Source of the DNA: Pithys albifrons albifrons
Taxonomy: Eukaryota > Chordata > Aves > Passeriformes > Thamnophilidae
Length of the DNA: 64,000 bases
Direction of reading: 5' to 3'
Assembly: GCF_047495875.1 (NCBI RefSeq)
Contig: NC_092459.1
Span: forward strand, 11,846,965-11,910,964
The notes under the pieces are model-generated. The model was given only the letters and a program-made list of their open reading frames with translations, ran no database searches and was not told the origin of the DNA. Made by a program: the position numbers and the translations under genes. Below are positions 14,991-55,974 of the stretch, in pieces. Numbering within the stretch: the first letter of the stretch is position 1; every line of letters starts with the position of its first letter.

Positions 14991-16836
14991 ATAGAGAAAT
15001 CAACATCTAACAGAATTAAGAGAGTCTTTCTGGCTGTTTTCCATCTAGAGCATTCCAATATTTCTAATGTTTAAAATATCCTATAAAATAAAGTCTGCAG
15101 GAATGTAAGAGCAAGTTAATTTTACCTTTAAAAATTATTTTTTATTTTCTGTAAATTAATAAGTTTGGTGTATATGAAGGTTAGAGTCTTTGTTGCTGTT
15201 GATATTGTTGTTGTTCTTGAAAGAAGGAAAAAGTGCTTTCTTTTCTCTCTTTGTCTCTTTAGGTTTTTTCACTAATCATGTAATGATTCATTTACCTGTT
15301 CTCTCAAACTGTCTCTTGGTTCCCCCTTCTATTCCCCATGAGCAAATGAAGACAGAAGAAATAGATCTTGTGCTGGATTACAGTTCAACTCTCCTGAGAC
15401 AAATGTCCCCATGGGACAAAGCTCTGTTATATTTTGCTTTTACCTTTCTACATTTTACCTACAGAAAAAAGCTGTAGAGGTAGGTGTCACACCACTTAAG
15501 ACCAAGCATGGAATGCTTTATCTTTTCTCATGCTTCTTTCCAAGAGGTGGGAGTACAGAGATAACTGAAGTGGGGGAAGTGTATGTTTGTGCATGAAAGC
15601 TCATGCATGGTTGGGTTTTCTGCAAAACATGCACTCTGAGATGTGAGATATATTTTAAAACCTTAAAAATTAATTACACTACCCTCTACCTTTGTCTTCC
15701 AGAAAAAGTGGAGTAACAGCTGCTATAAAATGTTCCTGACAGAAGATGCTGTTGCTAATTTCTTTTGGACTTCTATCTTTTTTTTTAATTTATTCCACCA
15801 CATATTGGCTGATCCCACAAGACTTCTTTTCATGGATTTATAGTCCACAAGGCTTTGGAGGTAAAAGCTGTGTTTTAGCTTTCTTGAATTTGCCAGAAAA
15901 TGACAAATTGAAGTCTTGACTATGTCTGGATGTGTGTTTTCTAATTTCATTTTATCTGCTCAATGATCTGCCAATATTTCACAGCTTCTCCTGTACTTTA
16001 TATTCAGTAAAATATTGCGTAAAATTTTTGGTTCATGTCTGGTTTTGCAATTAAATTATTATACCCTTAGTACTTATAAACTGGTTTTTGCTTGCTCATG
16101 TCTTTGGACAATCCACCTAAAGGATTAATTTCCTCAGTGTCAATTTCTAGGAAATTATATTTTTTAAAGCTAGGGAAAATAAAGCAACTAAATTTTCTCA
16201 TCTTTATTTCAGGACCATTTTGAATGTAATAAAATGGGCTTGAAATTGAAGCTGATCATAATAGTGTATAGATAACTGGTTTTTTCCAAAGAACATAAGA
16301 TTGGTTTTGATTTAATGTTATAAGCTTTTGAGAATTTGTAACACTGATTATGAAAATATTTATGCTCCCTTCAAGTGTGTCCATTGAACTCAGTGGAATT
16401 TGTCCACTGGCTTCAAGGGTCCTTGTATTGTAACCAGATTCATTCAGGTGAGATTGTGTCCTGGGTAAAGGGCACAATTGGGTGGGTGATTTTTAAACCA
16501 TATTACAAAATAATAATGAAATGGGGATATTTCAGATGAAACCATGATGTGAAAAAATAAAATAGTTAATTTACTTCTTCCCTTCACATTGAACAAAATG
16601 CTTTTGTGTAATATTAAAGGGTCAGAAAAAAGAATCACTTAAATTAGGTCCAGATATAATGAATATAATGAACTTCCAAACTTGAATGAGCATGATATTT
16701 TCCTTATGCTTGAAGCTGTGCTATAATCTTATCTGCCTAATGATAAGTTAGGATCTATTCAAGAAAGTTTTCTGAAGTCACAGTGGAGCCACACATGTGA
16801 AAGAAAGGTCAAATATTAACCTTAACTTTTTCCATA
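14991..16836. other. Unique noncoding DNA
   Basis: AT-rich, no recognisable gene, RNA gene or repeat up to the start of the LTR element. It includes a short TTG-rich stretch near 15190-15220. Confidence 0.65.
16832..16836. repeat. 5' target-site duplication (CCATA)
   Basis: CCATA directly before the TG of the left LTR; the same five bases follow the right LTR at 19540-19544. This marks the integration point. Confidence 0.9.
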
Positions 16837-17470
16837 TGTTATGGGTTTAGCCAGGTGGGCCTAAATTTAGGTTTTAAAGTTCAGCTAGGCCTGGGAATTG
16901 TCAGCTGACTTGAGCTGGGCTGAGCTAGCTAACAGCTGACTTCTTCTAGCCAATAATATTGTATTCCATACCATATTGCATCATCTCAAAAGGGGTAAGA
17001 GCTGGTGTGTGGGTGTGGCTTGGGCAGTTGCTTCACAGCTGTGGTGCCAGCAAGACACTCTGCTGTCCCAGGAGGGATGGGGAGGCCCAAGCCCAGAGCA
17101 CCGGCTTAACATCATGTTATCTGAGGGAAGTAAAATGTTTGTTCTTAGCTTTTCTCTCTGCTTAAGTCTGTCTCTGAAGAACCAACTTCTCTAGAATGAT
17201 TTGTAGTTAAAATGGTAGAATTTGTGTTTACTGGGAAGTGGGAAGTTATTTCTTGTTATACATAACTTGTGTAAGTGTGTGTTACATTGTAGTATCCTCT
17301 TAATTTTCTCCTTTCTGTATAAATACATGTAGTGAGTTTCAGCATAGACCTGGCTTTGGAAGTTTTTTTTCCTCTCTCCCCCTTCTTTTTCCCTTGGCTT
17401 GTTGGGGGGAGGAGGAACCCTTTTCATCCTGTCCTGGACAGCTGGCGTTTTGCCAGCTCAACCCAGGACA
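16837..17470 (+). repeat. 5' LTR (634 bp)
   Basis: Begins TGTTATGGGTTTAGCC and ends CCCAGGACA. The U3 has two CAGCTGACTT repeats containing CAGCTG E-boxes (near 16900 and 16932), a CCAAT box at 16950-16954 and a TATA box TATAAATA at 17318-17325. Transcription should start roughly 25-30 bp downstream. I see no canonical AATAAA downstream of the TATA box, so the polyadenylation signal is either noncanonical or absent. The last 41 bases fold into a strong two-tier stem-loop (listed separately). Confidence 0.95.
17430..17470 (+). other. U5-terminal stem-loop next to the primer site
   Basis: An outer stem TGTCCTGG (17430-17437) pairs with CCAGGACA (17463-17470). An inner stem AGCTGGC (17440-17446) pairs with GCCAGCT (17452-17458) around a GTTTT loop. 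All 15 pairs are Watson-Crick. The hairpin ends exactly at the LTR edge, seven bases before the primer-binding site, where retroviral RNAs commonly carry a U5 inverted-repeat structure involved in reverse-transcription initiation. It is unchanged in the right LTR (19499-19539). Confidence 0.75.
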
Positions 17471-17476
17471 GATAAT

Positions 17477-17494
17477 TGGTGCATTGGCCGGGAA
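17477..17494 (+). other. Primer-binding site, tRNA-Gly(GCC)
   Basis: TGGTGCATTGGCCGGGAA is complementary over all 18 bases to the 3' end (including CCA) of vertebrate tRNA-Gly-GCC. After one mismatch, CGAA continues the complementarity into the T-loop. It lies six bases after the 5' LTR, the expected location for priming minus-strand DNA synthesis. Confidence 0.85.
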
Positions 17495-17609
17495 ACGAAG
17501 GCCACTAGCAAGTGTCCCAGAGAGTTGGCAGGGTTCCCGGGAGCTTTGTTGTAGAAACATTCCTTGATTTCTGCTTTGTTATGGTACATCTAGAACAACT
17601 AAGATAAGA
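17495..17609 (+). other. Leader between primer site and open frame
   Basis: 115 bp of untranslated leader. It could hold a packaging signal, but nothing specific is recognisable. Confidence 0.4.
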
Positions 17610-17927
17610 ATGTCCTCTTGCTACTGGATACTCGTTTTATTCCTTGTACTGACTGTTTTTGTGAGTTCAGACAGCTCAACTCGTAGCTGCTGTGAATGCA
17701 GCCACTGCAAGGAGAAGCCTTACAGCCACAGCAAGCTGTCTTTCTCTCCTGCCTCACCTCACCAGAGAGCAAACCCCAAGCGTGTGTCACTTGGTGAACT
17801 GTCGTCCTTCCTGTGTGACCAGGGGAAAGACATGAGGAGGTGGGACAGTGCATCTACTTCTGTGCTTGAAGTCCAGGTATGGAAATCAAAACGTAAGAAA
17901 GCTGGTATAAAGCTGTCTACATGTTGA
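17610..17927 (+). CDS. Putative secreted/membrane microprotein of the LTR element (105 aa)
   Basis: An ATG with A at -3 opens a 105-codon frame ending in TGA. Residues 1-5 are polar, residues about 6-18 form an uninterrupted hydrophobic helix (WILVLFLVLTVFV), and residues 19-22 are small/polar: the layout of a cleavable signal peptide. A cysteine cluster CCECSHC follows at 27-33, with further cysteines at 69 and 105 and tryptophans at 78 and 91. The C-terminal third is basic (KSKRKK at about 92-97). It occupies the place where gag should start but has no capsid, zinc-knuckle or protease features. It could be the amino-terminal piece of an envelope glycoprotein brought up to the leader by deletion, a captured host exon, or a chance frame. 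Because the element is very young, an open frame by itself is weak proof of selection. No family was recognised. Confidence 0.4.
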   Translation: MSSCYWILVLFLVLTVFVSSDSSTRSCCECSHCKEKPYSHSKLSFSPASPHQRANPKRVSLGELSSFLCDQGKDMRRWDSASTSVLEVQVWKSKRKKAGIKLSTC

Positions 17928-18192
17928 AGCAGAGATCCCAGAACAGAGCCAAGAACCGCAATTAAGCCGCCCTGCCACCAGCCGAGAGGAGGAGGAGAAC
18001 GACCAAGTCTACTGGACATTGCTGAACCAGAAAACTAGCCAAGACTGTACCTCTACACTGACTTGTAGATGACAGCCAGTGCCCCTCTGAGGGTGGCTGG
18101 ACCGATAAAAGAAGATTATTTGATGCATAGAGAGGCCCATGTGGGGTGTTGGTGTGTGGCAGGACACTGCTGCTTGAGTAGAATCTGTAGAG
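17928..18192 (+). other. Noncoding internal region of the LTR element
   Basis: No frame of retroviral type can be followed here. It joins the 105-codon frame to the pol remnant and probably contains deletion junctions. It includes a short GA-rich tract (GAGAGGAGGAGGAG, 17980-17993). Confidence 0.4.
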
Positions 18193-18387
18193 ATTCATCA
18201 TGTGGATGCTCATGTGCCCAAAGGCTGAGCTAATAAGGAACAGCACACCTGGACTGGCATAAGGGAGAGTTGTTCCTGGCTCAATGGGCCCAGGATGCCT
18301 CAGCCCACCTGCAGGTGGACAAGGCCGAGGGGTGGATTTAACCATGGACATTATTTCCCAGGTTATCCGCTATTGTGAAACCCCTGA
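18193..18387 (+). pseudogene. RNase H/integrase (pol) remnant, frame-broken
   Basis: Three short blocks in different frames resemble the RNase H-integrase junction of ERVL-like pol. The first, at 18193-18222, reads IHHVDAHVPK and is followed in frame by a stop. The second, about 18269-18313, reads ELFLAQWAQDASAHL and covers the start of the integrase zinc-binding domain. The third, at 18329-18382, reads GVDLTMDIISQVIRYCET and runs to the region of the domain's cysteine pair. The expected second cysteine is missing because the sequence passes straight into the hairpin minisatellite. At least two frame changes and one stop make it non-functional. The rest of integrase and all of reverse transcriptase are absent. 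The assignment rests on remembered family patterns, not on a search. Confidence 0.65.
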
Positions 18388-18601
18388 GAAGGGGATGGAG
18401 ACCCCAGTGTGGGGATAGAGACCCCTGAGAAGGGGATGGAGACCCCAGTGTGGGGATAGAGACCCCTGAGAAGGGGATTGGAGACCCCAGTGTGGGGATA
18501 GTGACCCCTGAAAACGGGGATAGTGACCCCTGAAAAGGGGATAGTGCCCCCAGTGTGGGGATGGTGACCCTAATGAAGTTATAGTGACCCCTAAGAAGGG
18601 G
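18381..18601 (+). repeat. Minisatellite of CCCC(N5-6)GGGG hairpin units
   Basis: About eleven half-units of 20-22 bp, ten of them well preserved, alternate mainly between CCCCTGAGAAGGGG and CCCCAGTGTGGGG cores joined by AT(A/G)GAGA or ATAGTGA spacers. The first three pairs form a 41-bp higher-order unit (starting 18381, 18422 and 18463). Later units drift (18505, 18527, 18547), and the one at 18568 has lost its pairing. Each core is a self-complementary 4-bp stem with a 5-7 nt loop, so the RNA or single-stranded DNA could form a row of small hairpins. The C4/G4 runs also give regularly spaced G4 tracts. The reverse-strand frame through it is a by-product of the repeat. Confidence 0.9.
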
Positions 18602-18892
18602 ATGGGATAATCCCAATGTGTGCCTCAAGGACATTTAACCTTGAGGAAAAAGGTAACTTGGATTTTGAGTTTTGTGTTGTAGGACATGAACCATGAGATG
18701 AAGAAGACCTGAGCTGAACTGGTGTTGGTGTCCAATGATGAACTGTTCTTCCTGCCTGAAGTACCTACCCCATCCTAATGGACTATTGCCTACAATATGG
18801 AGGGGTGGAAGACAGCCCTGGAAAGAACAAAGACTGTTTAAGCGCGGGAATAGATAGATTGAAGATATGAGTGATGTAATATGGTATGGAAT
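18602..18892 (+). other. 3' untranslated internal region of the LTR element
   Basis: No retroviral frame recognisable. This is the region between pol and the polypurine tract, where an env gene would lie in a complete provirus. No envelope motif is visible. Confidence 0.45.
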
Positions 18893-18902
18893 AAGGGGTG
18901 GA
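18893..18902 (+). other. Polypurine tract, weak
   Basis: AAGGGGTGGA, ending three bases before the TG of the 3' LTR. It is the expected plus-strand primer but is short and interrupted by one T. Confidence 0.5.
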
Positions 18903-18905
18903 ATA

Positions 18906-19539
18906 TGTTATGGGTTTAGCCAGGTGGGCCTAAATTTAGGTTTTAAAGTTCAGCTAGGCCTGGGAATTGTCAGCTGACTTGAGCTGGGCTGAGCTAGCTA
19001 ACAGCTGACTTCTTCTAGCCAATAATATTGTATTCCATACCATATTGCATCATCTCAAAAGGGGTAAGAGCTGGTGTGTGGGTGTGGCTTGGGCAGTTGC
19101 TTCACAGCTGTGGTGCCAGCAAGACACTCTGCTGTCCCAGGAGGGATGGGGAGGCCCAAGCCCAGAGCACCGGCTTAACATCATGTTATCTGAGGGAAGT
19201 AAAATGTTTGTTCTTAGCTTTTCTCTCTGCTTAAGTCTGTCTCTGAAGAACCAACTTCTCTAGAATGATTTGTAGTTAAAATGGTAGAATTTGTGTTTAC
19301 TGGGAAGTGGGAAGTTATTTCTTGTTATACATAACTTGTGTAAGTGTGTGTTACATTGTAGTATCCTCTTAATTTTCTCCTTTCTGTATAAATACATGTA
19401 GTGAGTTTCAGCATAGACCTGGCTTTGGAAGTTTTTTTTCCTCTCTCCCCCTTCTTTTTCCCTTGGCTTGTTGGGGGGAGGAGGAACCCTTTTCACCCTG
19501 TCCTGGACAGCTGGCGTTTTGCCAGCTCAACCCAGGACA
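18906..19539 (+). repeat. 3' LTR (634 bp)
   Basis: Copy of the 5' LTR offset by 2069 bases, differing only at 19496 (C, versus T at 17427) in a base-by-base reading. The TATA box is at 19387-19394 and the terminal stem-loop at 19499-19539. Confidence 0.95.
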
Positions 19540-19544
19540 CCATA
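19540..19544. repeat. 3' target-site duplication (CCATA)
   Basis: Same five bases as 16832-16836, directly after the terminal CA of the right LTR. Confidence 0.9.
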
Positions 19545-22500: not shown

Positions 22501-23734
22501 ACAATTCTTTTGACTGCAATAATGTTACACAAGTGGAATGCAAGGCAGAATTAAGTCTTCTGCAATAAGGAGTCAAGAGTCAGGAAATGCTTTCTGCCCC
22601 ACGTATAATGATGTTATTTTGCTGTTCTCCAAGATATTAAAGGCACTGTGCAAAAAGCCTCCTAACTGTTTTATTATATTGCTTTTAAGGGTGGGATTCA
22701 CTGCAATTGTTTTAGGAAACTGTTTCTGACAAGTATCGAAAGAGATCTTTGCTTCAGTACTTGTGATTATGAAATTATTCTAGGAATTCAGTAAGTAAAT
22801 CATTACTTCCTTCTTCACTGTATAGGAGAAACCAGACAAAGTTAGTTCAAATCCCTAGAAATCAGTGTTACAGCAGCCAAAAATTAGTCCCAATGTGTTA
22901 CAAAGCCTGGAAAGGATACACAAATTTTCCACATTTCCACATTAAGGATGAATCATTTGTCTTTGTTTTAGCAGCAATGCTAATAAAGCAAAGAATAAGG
23001 AAGGTGTATGCCAGAGGCAGACATGAATAATTTTGAATTGTTCAAGAGCTCAGTTTAATATGAAAAAAATTACTTCAACAATCTGCAAATGAATGAGCCA
23101 TAGAGGAGGAAAAGCCATACTTTTGGTATTAAATCAGTCCATTCATTTAACAGTTGGATGTGTTGATAGCTGAATTACCATCTGCATATAAGCAGATGTT
23201 TTCCATCCGTGTTTTAATGAATCTTATTTTTGTAATCAACTTCGTACAGAGTAAAAATCTGTTTTTAAGAAGCACTGGACTACTTTGGCCTGTCAAAATT
23301 ACAGACTATCTTATCAAATTAAAGTGTTTATGTGACTGTGCTTCCTTTTATAGTGTGAAATGCACCCTTTCTTAAGCAAGGATTCTCTCCCATGCATTTC
23401 AAAATGAAGTAGTGTCACTTCAGACTTTCCTAGAGCAAGGCTGTGGCAATTTGAGTAAGAGCATGCAGATATTGAAATAATTACCTCCCACTATTACCCA
23501 TGGGGCCTCAAGTAATTGCCTGCTTCCATTAGCATTTCATTTGATGCACTAATTATCTTCAGAAATGCCGGTTGCTTGTCCACTACCTGAAAGGATTACA
23601 TTCAATTTAAGCAACAAAGATTTTGCTAAAGCTGTCACCATGAAAATACAAGGCAAGGTGATGTATAAGAGCAGTCAAGCAGTAAAATCCATCATGTGCT
23701 TTTTTATTTGTTCAAAGTCACAAAATATTACCTG
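19545..23734. other. Unique AT-rich noncoding DNA
   Basis: No recognisable gene, RNA gene or repeat. All frames are short and F/L/K/S-rich, with no splice-bounded blocks that look coding. Confidence 0.65.
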
Positions 23735-24235
23735 CAATGTGTGCTTGCAGCCCAAAAAGCCAACCATATTCTGGTCTGCACAAAAAGTCACATGGAGGAA
23801 GGCAATTTGGTTCTCCCCAGTTACTCTGCACTCATGAGACCCCACCTGGAGTGCTGCATCCAGCTCTTGGGGGCCCACAATAGGAAGAACAGTGACCTGT
23901 TTGAGCATGCCCAGAGGAGAGCCATAAATATGATCAGAGGGATGGAATGCCTCTTCTATGAAGACAGACTGAGAGAGTTGTGGTTGTTCTATATAGAGAT
24001 GGGAAGGCTCCAGAGACAACTTAGAGCGGCCTTCCAGTACCTAGAGGGGCTACAAGAGACCTGGAGAGGGACTTTTTGCAAGGGCATGAATAATAGCACA
24101 AGGGGCAATGGCTTTAAACTGAAAGAGGATAGATTTAGATGAGACATCAGGAAAAACTTCTTTAGTGTGAGTGTGGTGAGGCACTCACACAGGTTGCCCA
24201 GAGAAGAGGTGAATGCCCCACCTGGCTTAAATTCA
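23735..24235 (+). mobile_element. CR1 LINE fragment lacking its 3' end
   Basis: The sequence follows the CR1 ORF2 C-terminal region in one mostly open frame: [12 protein letters not shown]..., then ...[14 protein letters not shown]..., then ...RRAINMIRGMECLFYEDRLREL..., then ...STRGNGFKLKEDRFR... to 24140. The typical 'gacatcaggaaaaacttcttt...gtgaggcactcacacaggttgcccagag' stretch follows. The copy stops near 24235 without the CR1 3' tail, although LINE insertion normally truncates the 5' end. It also carries an in-frame stop after 24140 and substitutions, so it is dead and fairly old. Confidence 0.9.
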
Positions 24236-33060: not shown

Positions 33061-35225
33061 GAATCTATTATTTACATTTTTATTCCCACCTTTTTCTGCC
33101 TAATTAGTTAGAAAATCAGAAGTGATAATCATGTCTCTATGAAACAGAAAGCAATGCAGTTGCTCCAATATATTTACAATAGATATATCTTGCCAGCAAA
33201 ACAGGAATAGATTCTATTTCAGAATGGAACAATGGCTACTAAACAAAATATTTCAATTACTCAAGCTAAGACAATAACTTTTGCAATGACCTCAATGGAA
33301 GAATTCCTGCCTAATTATTGGAAAAAGTGTTCTAATCCTTCTATATCTTACAATAGCACTCAGTGCATTCTGGACTCCCACTGGAGTCTGTCTCAAATGA
33401 CAGCACAGAGAGGATATAGCAAGGAATATGCAAAATGTGGAACATAGCCAAGCAAAGCTCAGTAGCTTCCCTCAAAAGGAGTAAGAATTTCTTGAGATTT
33501 GCCCTTCTCTTGCGATACTAATGATTCTACACAAAAAAAAATCCACCACATTGCTGCCTTTAGTGACAGTGTTGCATATCTGTTAATCGAGTAATACGTG
33601 CTTCTACAAAAATCAGGATGAACAAAGTTTTGTGTTTTCCTAAATCTTCTTTTCAAATATTCTCTGAACTAACCAACTTGTTGAAACATTATTTTGTTTA
33701 TAAATCTGGTCCTTCATAGAAAAATAAAAAGAGATCTTATATTTGGGATTATAATTATTATTTTGTAAATTCAGAACGTTTTTCTTGTAGAGGCTAGCTG
33801 TGGAAAGAAATCCTGACAGAAATGCTTTCTGTCCAACTTAAGCAGTTATTAATATGACCCACAGTACATTGCTACATATGTAAAAACTATCAAAGAGTCT
33901 GGGAAAGTTTTTCTTTGAATGTGGCTTTGCAGATGTTGAATCACTTGGCATTTGCAAGCAGAAAAAATATGGTGCCTATAGTATATATTCCCATTGGCCT
34001 TTTGTGACCCAGGTTAGCTTTTCCTTAAAGAAAACATTAAACTTTGATGCATTGTGTCTTTCCTTTGTTATAAAATTTAATAAAATATTGATAAAACCAT
34101 TTGCTACTGCATAACAAACAGCAACATTACGGGTCTCAGGCAGTGTAAGATCACAGCTGAAAACTAGTTATAGCTACTTTCCCTATTTTCTTTCTCTGGC
34201 AAGCTGCAATTTGGAAAGCCTGTTAGAAAACACATTTCCATACTGGAAGAAAACTTTGAAATGAAATTTTTCTTTTAAATTAACACTCAGAAACATCTTA
34301 AGTATAGGTAAATTTATTTGTTGCCTACTGTACATTTCAATTGAAGTCAGTTTTATTTTACAATAATTGCTACTCTAGAAGAAAAATCCAAGGTCAATAG
34401 CAGCATGATTCAAGGATCATTCCTGAGCATCATCTTCAAATAGGTAATCCTTGTCAAATACACAATTGCATGGGTGCTTTTGTGTGTATGTGTTCATATT
34501 TGCAGCATGGAAGAAGCATGATTCACATGAAGGTTTTCAGTGGTAGCTGGCAATAAATAACAAGAACTTATCTCTCTTGTCATTCAAAGGATAGTTATTC
34601 TGTAACAGCTGTTTTTAATAGCTCTACAACTTTTTACATAAGGCAAGAGCCTCTTGTTCTGTTTAGTTTCATTTGTGTTTCACTGTGAGAGTAAGGGAGA
34701 GCAGTGATACTTTTAGGATCATATACATTTATATGAATTAACTTCTATTTGTAGGTAACTACCATCATTGCAAGGCAGTTTATACAACATGTGCCTATTT
34801 TAGAAGCTCAGCTGTTATTTTTGGATAAAATTGTTCACTATCCTGTCAGAATCCAAGGGAACCAGTAGGAATTCTATTTTTAAAAAAGGTAAATGTATTT
34901 AATGATTTTTTTGCTGCAAAGTAGACATGACTGTGTTTAAAGATCAGAAGCATGTCAAGCTGAATAACTGAGAGTAACCTGAAAACCCAGGAGAGGAGGG
35001 AAATGATACCCATCCTTTCCTTTGGAAATATAGATGATTAGTTCTGATCATTCTAACCTAGTTTTCCTGCACATACACTTCTGCTGTTTATTGTAGAATT
35101 GTCGGTAGACCATATGGTACATTGTAGGAAACATGTTTTATGATATGAAGGGATATCAAGTGCTTAGCTTTATTTCATCATTTTTTGCCATGATAACTGC
35201 ATTTAAAAAAAAAAAACAAAACCAA
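33061..35225. other. Unique AT-rich noncoding DNA
   Basis: Nothing recognisable; no coding-like frames. An A-rich run (about 35204-35222) immediately precedes the CR1 copy. Confidence 0.65.
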
Positions 35226-36212
35226 ACTGGAGAACTGGAGACCAGTGACAAATGGTGCTTGTCAGGGGCTGGAATTGGGACAGGCACAGTTTAATCTTTC
35301 TTGGTTACATGGAGAGTGGGATCGAGTGCACCCTGTGCAAGTTTGCCAACCCAAGCTGTGTGGTGCAATTGACATGCTGGAGGGAAGGGATACCATCCAG
35401 AGGGGTGGAAACAGTCCTGAGAGATGGGCCTGTGCAAACAGTGTGAAGTTCAACAAGGCCAAGTCAAGGTCTTGCACCTGGATTGGGGAAATTCCAAGCA
35501 CAAATACAGGCAGGATAAAGAATAGATTTAAAGCAGCCCTGAGAGGAAGGACACGGGGGACAAGAAGTTCAATACAAGCTGAGCAATGTGCACTGGCAGC
35601 CCAGAAAGACAACTGTATCCTGTGCTGCATCCAAAGCAGTCTGGCCTGCAGCTTGAGCAATGGGATGCTGCTTCTCTGGTGTGCTCTGCTGATACCCAAC
35701 CTGGAGTTCTGCATCCAGTTTTGGGGTCCCCACCATGAGAAAGACATGGACCTGTTGGAGTAAGCTCAGAGAAGGGCCATGAATGTGATCAGAAGACTGC
35801 AGCACCCCTTCCACGGAGGCAGTCTGAGAGAGCTGGGATTGTTCACTCTGGAGAAGAAAAAGCTCCCAGGTGACCTTATAGCACCTTCCAATACTTAAAA
35901 GGGATACAAGAGAGCTGAAGAGAGCTTTCTTGCAAGGACATATGGTGATAGGGCAATAGAGATAGGACTAGAAGAAGGTAAATTTAGATCAGATGATAGA
36001 AAATAATTATTTACTGTGAGGATGGTGAGACACCGGAACAGGTTGCCCCAAGGAAGTGGCTGTTGCCACATCCCTGATAGTGTTCAAGGCCAAGCTGGAT
36101 GGAACTCTGAGCAACTTGGTGTAGCAAAAGGTGTCCCTGCCCACAGGAGAGGGATTGGAAGTAGATGACCTTTAATGTCCCTTCCAACCCAAACCATTCT
36201 GTGATTGTCTTA
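35226..36212 (+). mobile_element. CR1 LINE, 5'-truncated, about 1 kb
   Basis: Begins 'ggagaactggagaccagtgacaaatgg' and continues through the C-terminal third of CR1 ORF2. Recognisable pieces include AAQKDNCILCCIQSSLA..., LEFCIQFWGPHHEKDMDLLE followed by a stop at 35761, and then REL-GLFTLEKKKLPGDL-type sequence in the same region. The 3' tail 'tgtccctgcccacaggag...ccttccaacccaaaccattctgtgat' ends near 36212. Stops and frameshifts show it is inactive. Its 5' truncation and complete 3' end are the normal outcome of target-primed reverse transcription. Confidence 0.92.
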
Positions 36213-55603: not shown

Positions 55604-55974
55604 AGTGTGTGTGTGTCTGTGTCTGTGTCTGTGTGTGTGTGTGTCTGTGTGTCTGTGTGTCTGTGTGTGTCTGTGTCTGTGTCTGTGTCTGTGTCTGTGT
55701 CTGTGTCTGTGTGTCTGTGTGTCTGTGTGTGTCTGTGTGTCTGTGTGTGTCTGTGTGTCTGTGTGTGTGTCTGTGTCTGTGTCTGTGTCTCTGTGTGTCT
55801 GTGTGTCTGTGTGTCTGTGTGTGTCTGTGTGTGCCTGTGTCTCTGTGTGTCTCTGTGTCTCTGTGTGTCTGTGTGTCTGTGTGTCTCTGTGTGTCTGTGT
55901 GTGTCTGTGTGTGTGTGTGTGTGTCTGTGTCTGTGTCTGTGTCTCTGTGTCTGTGTGTCTCTGTGTGTGTGCGT
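55604..55974 (+). repeat. Large compound microsatellite (TG)n / (TCTG)n
   Basis: About 370 bp built from TG dinucleotides interrupted by C so that TGTGTCTG, TGTCTG and TCTCTG units alternate. All frames on both strands stay open because the repeat contains no stop codon, which produces spurious frames of up to 195 codons. No gene is implied. Alternating purine-pyrimidine stretches have Z-DNA potential, and the locus is expected to vary in length between individuals. Confidence 0.97.

What the first reader, a model, noticed from the sequence alone, without database searches (positions are those of the whole stretch)
16837..19539. Non-autonomous ERVL-like element that must borrow its enzymes
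It keeps the cis signals (LTRs, primer site, polypurine tract, target duplication) but lacks gag, protease and reverse transcriptase, with only scraps of RNase H/integrase. Together with the near-identical LTRs this implies recent mobilisation in trans by an autonomous relative. It would be the avian equivalent of a TRIM/LARD-type parasite of a retrovirus.
Basis: partly seen in the sequence, partly recalled or inferred. Interest (0 to 1): 0.75.

Follow-up and report, generated by a model that had tools for sequence, protein, structure and literature searches.

The report
Enzyme-less bird retroelement in many copies
A 2.7-kb virus-like jumping element in what looks like a bird genome has lost all its own enzymes but exists in many near-identical copies, so it most likely spread with enzymes borrowed from a relative, as some well-known mouse elements do.

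Summary
In detail: two 634-bp LTRs (one mismatch), a 5-bp target duplication (CCATA), a primer site, and a 1435-bp interior without gag, protease or RT, keeping only a stop-ridden RNase H/integrase scrap. The refuter, a one-off deletion, is excluded. In the window's genome 8 of 34 other LTR loci are complete copies of the same short design, each with its own 5-bp duplication. 45 of 89 exact 5' ends pair with a listed 3' end 1294-1469 bp away. Of the 40 best 3'-interior matches, 37 carry the same ORF upstream and the other 3 the same repeat array. Copies share pol stop codons, so they were made after the enzymes were lost. It is a multi-copy, recently active, non-autonomous ERVL-like family; mammalian MaLR (MT/ORR1) is the closest analogue, not TRIM or LARD. 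The primer site switches between tRNA-Gly(GCC), tRNA-Gly(UCC) and tRNA-Glu(CUC) without inheritance on the tree, and some 5' ends carry a copy of the whole primer tRNA. A 105-codon ORF is open for 90 codons in 30 of 30 copies read, but shows no amino-acid constraint, and 3 of 12 further copies have stops. No helper with this LTR was found; 32 of 100 listed 3' ends remain unassigned.

The parts
16832..16836 (.). 5' copy of the 5-bp target site duplication CCATA
16837..17470 (+). 5' LTR, 634 bp, TG..CA; TATAAAT at 17318
17477..17494 (+). primer binding site, complement of the 3' end of tRNA-Gly(GCC), after spacer GATAAT
17471..18905 (+). internal region without gag, protease or RT; 1321-1456 bp in the 9 full copies
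17610..17927 (+). 105-codon ORF (with stop); first 90 codons open in 30 of 30 copies read, stops in 3 of 12 further copies; no known homologue
18012..18380 (+). degenerate RNase H to integrase N-terminus scrap in different frames with stops (18012-18308 by alignment, 18309-18380 by eye)
18380..18605 (+). tandem array, period about 41 bp, of CCCC-loop-GGGG mini-hairpin units
18872..18893 (+). arm of a 22-nt inverted repeat; partner in U3 at 19031-19052 (and 16962-16983)
18889..18905 (+). imperfect polypurine tract next to the 3' LTR
18906..19539 (+). 3' LTR, 634 bp, 1 mismatch to the 5' LTR
19540..19544 (.). 3' copy of the target site duplication CCATA

Best explanation
This is one copy of a multi-copy, recently active, non-autonomous LTR retrotransposon family derived from an ERVL-type endogenous retrovirus. 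SHOWN: two LTRs, 5-bp duplications, tRNA primer site, a conserved 3' end, no enzyme genes, many copies of the same roughly 2.7-kb design, shared pol lesions, near-identical LTRs in several copies, and exchange of the primer site among three tRNAs. INFERRED: transcription from the LTR; packaging of the RNA by Gag of an ERVL-type relative; priming by whichever tRNA-Gly or tRNA-Glu is captured; reverse transcription and integration by the relative's Pol, leaving 5-bp duplications. Which relative is the helper is not shown.
For: Copies: 8 of 34 other LTR loci are complete short copies; all 9, with the window's, have different 5-bp duplications and interiors of 1321-1456 bp. 45 of 89 exact 5' ends pair with one of the 100 listed (of 136) 3' ends at 1294-1469 bp. 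37 of 40 best 3'-interior matches have the ORF 885-1160 bp upstream; the other 3 carry the array. Interior pieces: 40 of 40 scored at 93-100% identity of 467 candidates and 40 of 40 at 95-100% of 560. Decay before movement: a pol stop shared by 8 of 9 copies and another by 9 of 9, while 6 of 9 copies have at most 2 LTR substitutions. Fresh priming: the primer site is complementary to tRNA-Gly(GCC) in 20 of 30 copies, tRNA-Gly(UCC) in 8, tRNA-Glu(CUC) in 1, mutated in 1; tRNA genes with those 3' ends are in the genome. The type changes 9 times on a tree of 29 copies with 9 minority copies, so it is not inherited. ERVL-type: exact 5-bp duplications in 9 of 9 full copies and 20 of 24 single LTRs.
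Against: No gag-pol provirus with this LTR was found. Among 89 exact 5' ends one pairs at 7772 bp, but it has the ORF 148 bp downstream, so it is of the short type; none pairs between 2.5 and 7.7 kb. Only exact ends and 100 of 136 3' ends were usable. 32 of the 100 listed 3' ends have no ORF hit within 2.5 kb upstream among the 150 scored ORF places; most were not read, so a helper could be among them. The copies examined are the best matches to the window's sequence, so the young fraction is overstated. LTR gene conversion could mimic youth. ERVL assignment rests on duplication length and a broken pol scrap, not on an RT tree.
Confidence: 0.93

Rival explanations
1. A one-off deletion of a normal provirus after insertion.
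For: A single locus seen alone would look like this.
Against: Many copies with the same interior at unrelated sites with different duplications.
Confidence: 0.01
2. A non-autonomous family whose helper is the gag-pol ERVL lineage seen at C4 (L043-L045, L014), with a different LTR and a different primer site.
For: That lineage has long open frames in the pieces read (434 and 266 aa; 165 aa) and an open RT-RNase H piece. Our family's sequence is joined to pol sequence of this kind at L014 and, by eye, at L100 and L105. LTR termini look similar by eye.
Against: Only short, weak local similarity to our LTR. L014 has different LTRs at its two ends and no shared duplication, so it is more likely a microhomology joint than a reverse-transcription chimera. 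The 434, 165 and 266 aa frames match no Pfam family convincingly (best E 0.015).
Confidence: 0.35
3. A small coding element: the 105-codon ORF makes a peptide with a hydrophobic start that serves the element or host, rather than a purely non-coding parasite.
For: First 90 codons open in 30 of 30 copies read; no gap pattern in 285 bp against 4 in the 139 bp before it, one of which is a hit-end artefact; 1 stop against 5.5 expected, P 0.02. 119 of 150 scored protein matches have no stop (counted by hand).
Against: Amino-acid changes are not reduced: 86 against 77.5 expected; 9 copies gave 24 against 23.9. The +1 frame also lacks stops (0 against 3.7). Of the 40 places only 20 of 32 not yet held were fetched; 3 of the 12 left out have a stop according to (C2:6187873, C2:104069768, C40:30921258). 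The 150 were ranked by protein score, which favours open frames. No homologue (one weak PHROGs match, E 0.099).
Confidence: 0.1

Closest known systems
MaLR elements of mammals (MT about 2 kb, ORR1 2.5 kb; PMC3915180, passages seen)
   Same: Class III/ERVL relatives, non-autonomous, internally deleted, LTRs around non-coding repetitive DNA, similar size; 5-bp duplications (recalled for MaLR).
   Different: Bird-like genome; sequence relation not tested; a pol scrap and a 105-codon ORF remain; primer tRNA-Gly/Glu (MERVL uses tRNA-Leu per PMC3915180).
TguERVL2_I / TguERVL2_I_Ucy of songbirds (PMC6523648, passages and section 3.4 seen)
   Same: Recently active avian ERVL (the paper assigns ERVL by 5-bp duplications), most copies solo LTRs; the kind of autonomous element that could act as helper.
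ETn/MusD and deer-mouse mysTR-related non-autonomous ERVKs (PMC10089650, passages seen)
   Same: Non-coding LTR element mobilised by a coding relative, sharing parts of the interior.
   Different: Class II (ERVK), not ERVL; there the coding relative is identified.
TRIM and LARD (PMC3532108, passages seen)
   Same: LTR elements without coding capacity, mobilised in trans.
   Different: TRIM: <1000 bp in all, LTRs about 100-350 bp. LARD: LTRs about 4.4 kb. Here 2703 bp and 634 bp.
Chicken ENS-1/ERNI (PMC3362752, passages seen)
   Same: Avian LTR element with hundreds of solo LTRs.
   Different: Carries a coding gene; relation to this element not tested.

Membership tests
Non-autonomous LTR retrotransposon | LTRs, primer site and 3' signal present, no gag/pol coding capacity | tested here: met
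[quoted passage not shown]
   9 read in full; 45 of 89 5' ends paired at 1294-1469 bp. The copy number is met; a 105-codon ORF without known homologue is present
Non-autonomous LTR retrotransposon | a coding helper that mobilises it | tested here: inconclusive
   no same-LTR helper found, 32 of 100 listed 3' ends unassigned; candidate lineage with another LTR
ERVL (ERV3) superfamily | 5-bp target duplications (rule used in PMC6523648, passages seen) | tested here: met
   9 of 9 full copies, 20 of 24 single LTRs
ERVL (ERV3) superfamily | RT places within ERVL on a tree | not testable with these tools
   no RT in the element; only an RNase H/IN scrap
MaLR | sequence relation to mammalian MaLR LTRs | not tested
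   no MaLR sequence was available; analogy only
TRIM | total <1000 bp, LTR about 100-350 bp | tested here: not met
   2703 bp and 634 bp; definition
LARD | LTRs about 4.4 kb and interior about 3.5 kb | tested here: not met
   634 bp and 1435 bp; definition

The most novel reading that the evidence does not exclude
A MaLR-like ERVL parasite of birds that has swapped its genes for a small ORF with a hydrophobic, signal-peptide-like start which it keeps open without conserving the amino acids, and that rewrites its primer site at each reverse transcription with one of several tRNAs, leaving whole-tRNA copies as fossils of each priming event.
Probability: 0.12. Interest if true: 0.7.

Novelty: new member of a known kind. 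Interest (0 to 1): 0.47.

Why it matters
It suggests that an ERVL-type helper/parasite pair, familiar from mouse MaLR and MERVL, has arisen again in a bird, with activity recent enough that insertions may still be polymorphic. The primer-site switching among three tRNAs, with whole-tRNA read-through copies, gives a natural record of which tRNA primed each copy and makes primer choice by an ERVL-type reverse transcriptase measurable from genome sequence.

Tried and rejected
One-off deletion: rejected by the copies. L014 as proof of co-packaging with a helper: rejected, because the upstream provirus has a different LTR at L044 about 818-1342 and no shared duplication. L013 as a helper's 3' end: no long open frame beside it. 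L091 (frame of 260 aa): the interior starts only at its base 102 and is fused to other sequence, judged by eye a chance fusion with a CR1-like stretch. ORF under amino-acid selection: not supported. Primer-site columns as more variable than the rest overall: not significant, 4 of 18 against 128 of 1175, P 0.13; L030 alone differs, 4 of 18 against 35 of 1175, P 0.002. Searches that led nowhere: viral and genome contig patterns, phages and plasmids, protein homologues, the search for related loci, NCBIfam, PHROGs and PDB, Rfam and tRNA scans of the window.
Full report
OBSERVATION. The element runs exactly from 16837 to 19539. Its LTRs (16837-17470, 18906-19539) are 634 bp each with one mismatch; CCATA flanks both sides; the interior is 1435 bp. 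The primer site is at 17477-17494 after a 6-nt spacer. No Pfam family was found in ten stop-to-stop stretches at E<=10, nor in one more piece. An open pol frame found later in the same genome (L014; RVT_1 E 7e-11, RNase_H E 1.8e-21) aligns to window 18012-18308 in two frames with stops. The polypurine tract is imperfect by composition, but its 17 bases are identical in 9 of 9 full copies.

HOST. The window lies in a 1.144-Gb assembly of 53 contigs. Stretches at 23669-24139 and 35197-35760 look like CR1 (recalled; no Pfam hit). This fits a bird, but no name is given.

COPIES. The first 464 bases of the LTR gave 3620 candidates, of which 40 were scored, all at 98-100%. These 40 places are the window's two LTRs plus 38 places in 34 other loci, all fetched with 3 kb on each side. 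Of the 34, 8 are complete copies, one (L014) is an interior plus 3' LTR joined to foreign pol, one (L013) keeps only the last part of the interior with its 3' LTR, and 24 have one whole LTR (L028 also has an LTR fragment). All 9 full copies, with the window's, have an exact 5-bp duplication, each different; interiors are 1321-1456 bp; LTR substitutions are 1, 1, 19, 1, 2, 7, 31, 2 and 2 (L021, L034 and L039 also have 2, 11 and 1 gap columns). 20 of the 24 single LTRs have an exact 5-bp duplication. Interior pieces gave 40 of 40 scored matches at 93-100% (467 candidates) and 40 of 40 at 95-100% (560 candidates). Of those last 40, 37 have the ORF 885-1160 bp upstream on the same strand. The array was read in 17 of 17 further places, which include the other 3; an eighteenth place was left out to save letters. 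Pattern counts are 136 3' ends (up to 1 mismatch, 100 listed) and 89 exact 5' ends (all listed), controls 0. 45 of the 89 pair with a listed 3' end at 1294-1469 bp; 1 pairs at 7772 bp but has the ORF close by; 22 have only the ORF; 21 have neither. In the other direction 68 of the 100 listed 3' ends have an ORF hit within 2.5 kb upstream and 32 do not. Of these 32, one is L013, one (C6:29793634) pairs with a 5' end at 1416 bp and has the array (L076), and one (C2:74709862) has the array (L090); the rest were not read. The copies end the one-off reading.

MOVED AFTER DECAY. In the scrap, the stop after HVPKG (HVPKS in L039) is shared by 8 of 9 copies (not L029), and the stop in GWI*P by 9 of 9. 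Yet 6 of 9 copies have at most 2 LTR substitutions. Interiors differ by 1.7-4.9% between copies, far more than LTR pairs within the young copies, so several source lineages were probably active. At an assumed 2.2e-9 changes per site per year (recalled) the window's copy is about 0.4 My old and the oldest of the nine about 11 My. The sample is of best matches, so it leans young.

PRIMER. The primer site is TGGTGCATTGGCCGGGAA in 20, TGGTGCGTTGGCCGGGAA in 8, TGGTTCCCTGACCGGGAA in 1 (L030) and mutated in 1 (L069). A pattern for the matching tRNA 3' ends gave 8 places, control 0. ARAGORN calls them tRNA-Gly(GCC), tRNA-Gly(UCC) and tRNA-Glu(CUC). L049, L051, L052 (Gly-UCC), L047 and L048 (Glu-CUC) show no element match. 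L050 (Gly-GCC) shows only a 26-bp match at the tRNA end and lacks the CCA-derived TGG, so I read it as a true gene. L046 and L053 carry the CCA copy and lie in element sequence. On a tree built without the primer site, the type changes 9 times among 29 copies (L069 left out) with 9 minority copies; shuffled labels average 8.2. So the type is not inherited, as copying of the primer at each reverse transcription predicts. L046 and L104 have LTR end, spacer and the complement of the whole tRNA-Gly(GCC); L106 has a shortened one; L111 has what I recognise (recalled) as initiator tRNA-Met (read by eye). L046 shows no 5-bp duplication.

OTHER 5' ENDS. Of the 21 without a paired 3' end or ORF hit, one is L046 and 20 were read for 140 bases. 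10 continue into the leader; for 7 of these the match stops at leader base 98. L095 is a larger deletion. L100 and L105 join the primer site to RNase H/integrase sequence that looks like L014's pol (by eye). L104, L106 and L111 are tRNA copies. L099 and L102 look like inverted copies of the other LTR (by eye). L092 and L101 are unexplained. No same-LTR helper was identified.

HELPER. Upstream of L014's interior lies an open gag-pol-like region in pieces (434 and 266 aa; 165 aa; no convincing Pfam match for these) behind an LTR of another family, about L044:818-1342, 82.6% identical to a stretch of L031. L014 has unlike LTRs and no shared duplication, so I read the join as a microhomology deletion between neighbours, not a reverse-transcription product. 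The lineage is a candidate helper only.

ORF. The longest + strand ATG frame of the interior is 105 codons; 7 of 500 shuffles reach that. Its first 90 codons are open in 30 of 30 copies read; L072 stops right after codon 90. Changes counted on a tree: 27 synonymous, 86 amino-acid and 1 stop, against 30.9, 77.5 and 5.5 expected (P 0.02 for so few stops); no gap pattern in 285 bp, 4 in the 139 bp before (one a hit-end artefact) and 5 in the 36 bp after (some at the end of the pieces). Against this, of the 12 places that were not fetched, 3 have a stop in the ORF. Of 150 scored protein matches (730 candidates), 119 have no stop (hand count), but the ranking favours open frames. Open in most copies, no amino-acid constraint: unresolved, and weaker than the 30 copies alone suggest.

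RNA FEATURES. The 41-bp array holds CCCC-loop-GGGG units, 3-9 per full copy by one pattern; its fold z is -4.75. A 22-nt inverted repeat pairs the end of the interior with U3, enclosing the polypurine tract (z -5.82); arms are kept with one change in each of L021, L030 and L039. No function was tested.

KNOWN. PMC3915180 (passages) describes MaLRs as non-autonomous, internally deleted, non-coding repetitive DNA between LTRs: the same plan. PMC6523648 (passages and section 3.4) describes active songbird ERVL. Passages of PMC4299795 and PMC8310711 were seen and not used; PMC10542752 gave no passage. Ten paper searches (listings only, open-access library) listed no paper that I recognised by title or abstract start as on an avian non-autonomous ERVL family; repeat databases could not be searched. 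I therefore rate it a new member of a known kind.

Noticed in passing
L046 1452-1525 and L104 (G000:C7:33720118-33720257): LTR end plus spacer followed by the complement of the whole tRNA-Gly(GCC): read-through copies of the primer tRNA; L106 has a shortened one and L111 a tRNA-iMet-like one (recalled).
   Followed up: partly
L014 1-1600 with L043-L045 (G000:C4): A gag-pol ERVL-like lineage with long open frames and a different LTR, joined to this family's interior at a short microhomology by the primer site.
   Followed up: partly
18872-18893 with 19031-19052: 22-nt inverted repeat between the interior's end and U3 that would put the polypurine tract in an RNA hairpin.
   Followed up: partly
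16837-17470: CpG observed/expected 0.065 in the LTR against 0.21 in the interior and about 0.10 in the flanks, although the insertion is young.
   Followed up: no
23669-24139 and 35197-35760: CR1-like translated stretches (recognised by recall; no Pfam or NCBIfam hit).
   Followed up: no
55606-55971: Long TG-rich tandem repeat array.
   Followed up: no
L093, L094, L097, L107-L110: Seven 5' ends whose leader matches only to base 98 and then diverges: possibly another interior or a helper.
   Followed up: no
L099, L100, L102: Primer site followed within about 100 bp by what look like inverted LTR sequences, perhaps autointegration-type products (by eye).
   Followed up: no
G000:C33 (293611, 743641, 776681) and C13 (93298-98916), C11 (224726-228413): Clusters of copies close together on small contigs, perhaps tandem or segmental duplicates.
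   Followed up: no
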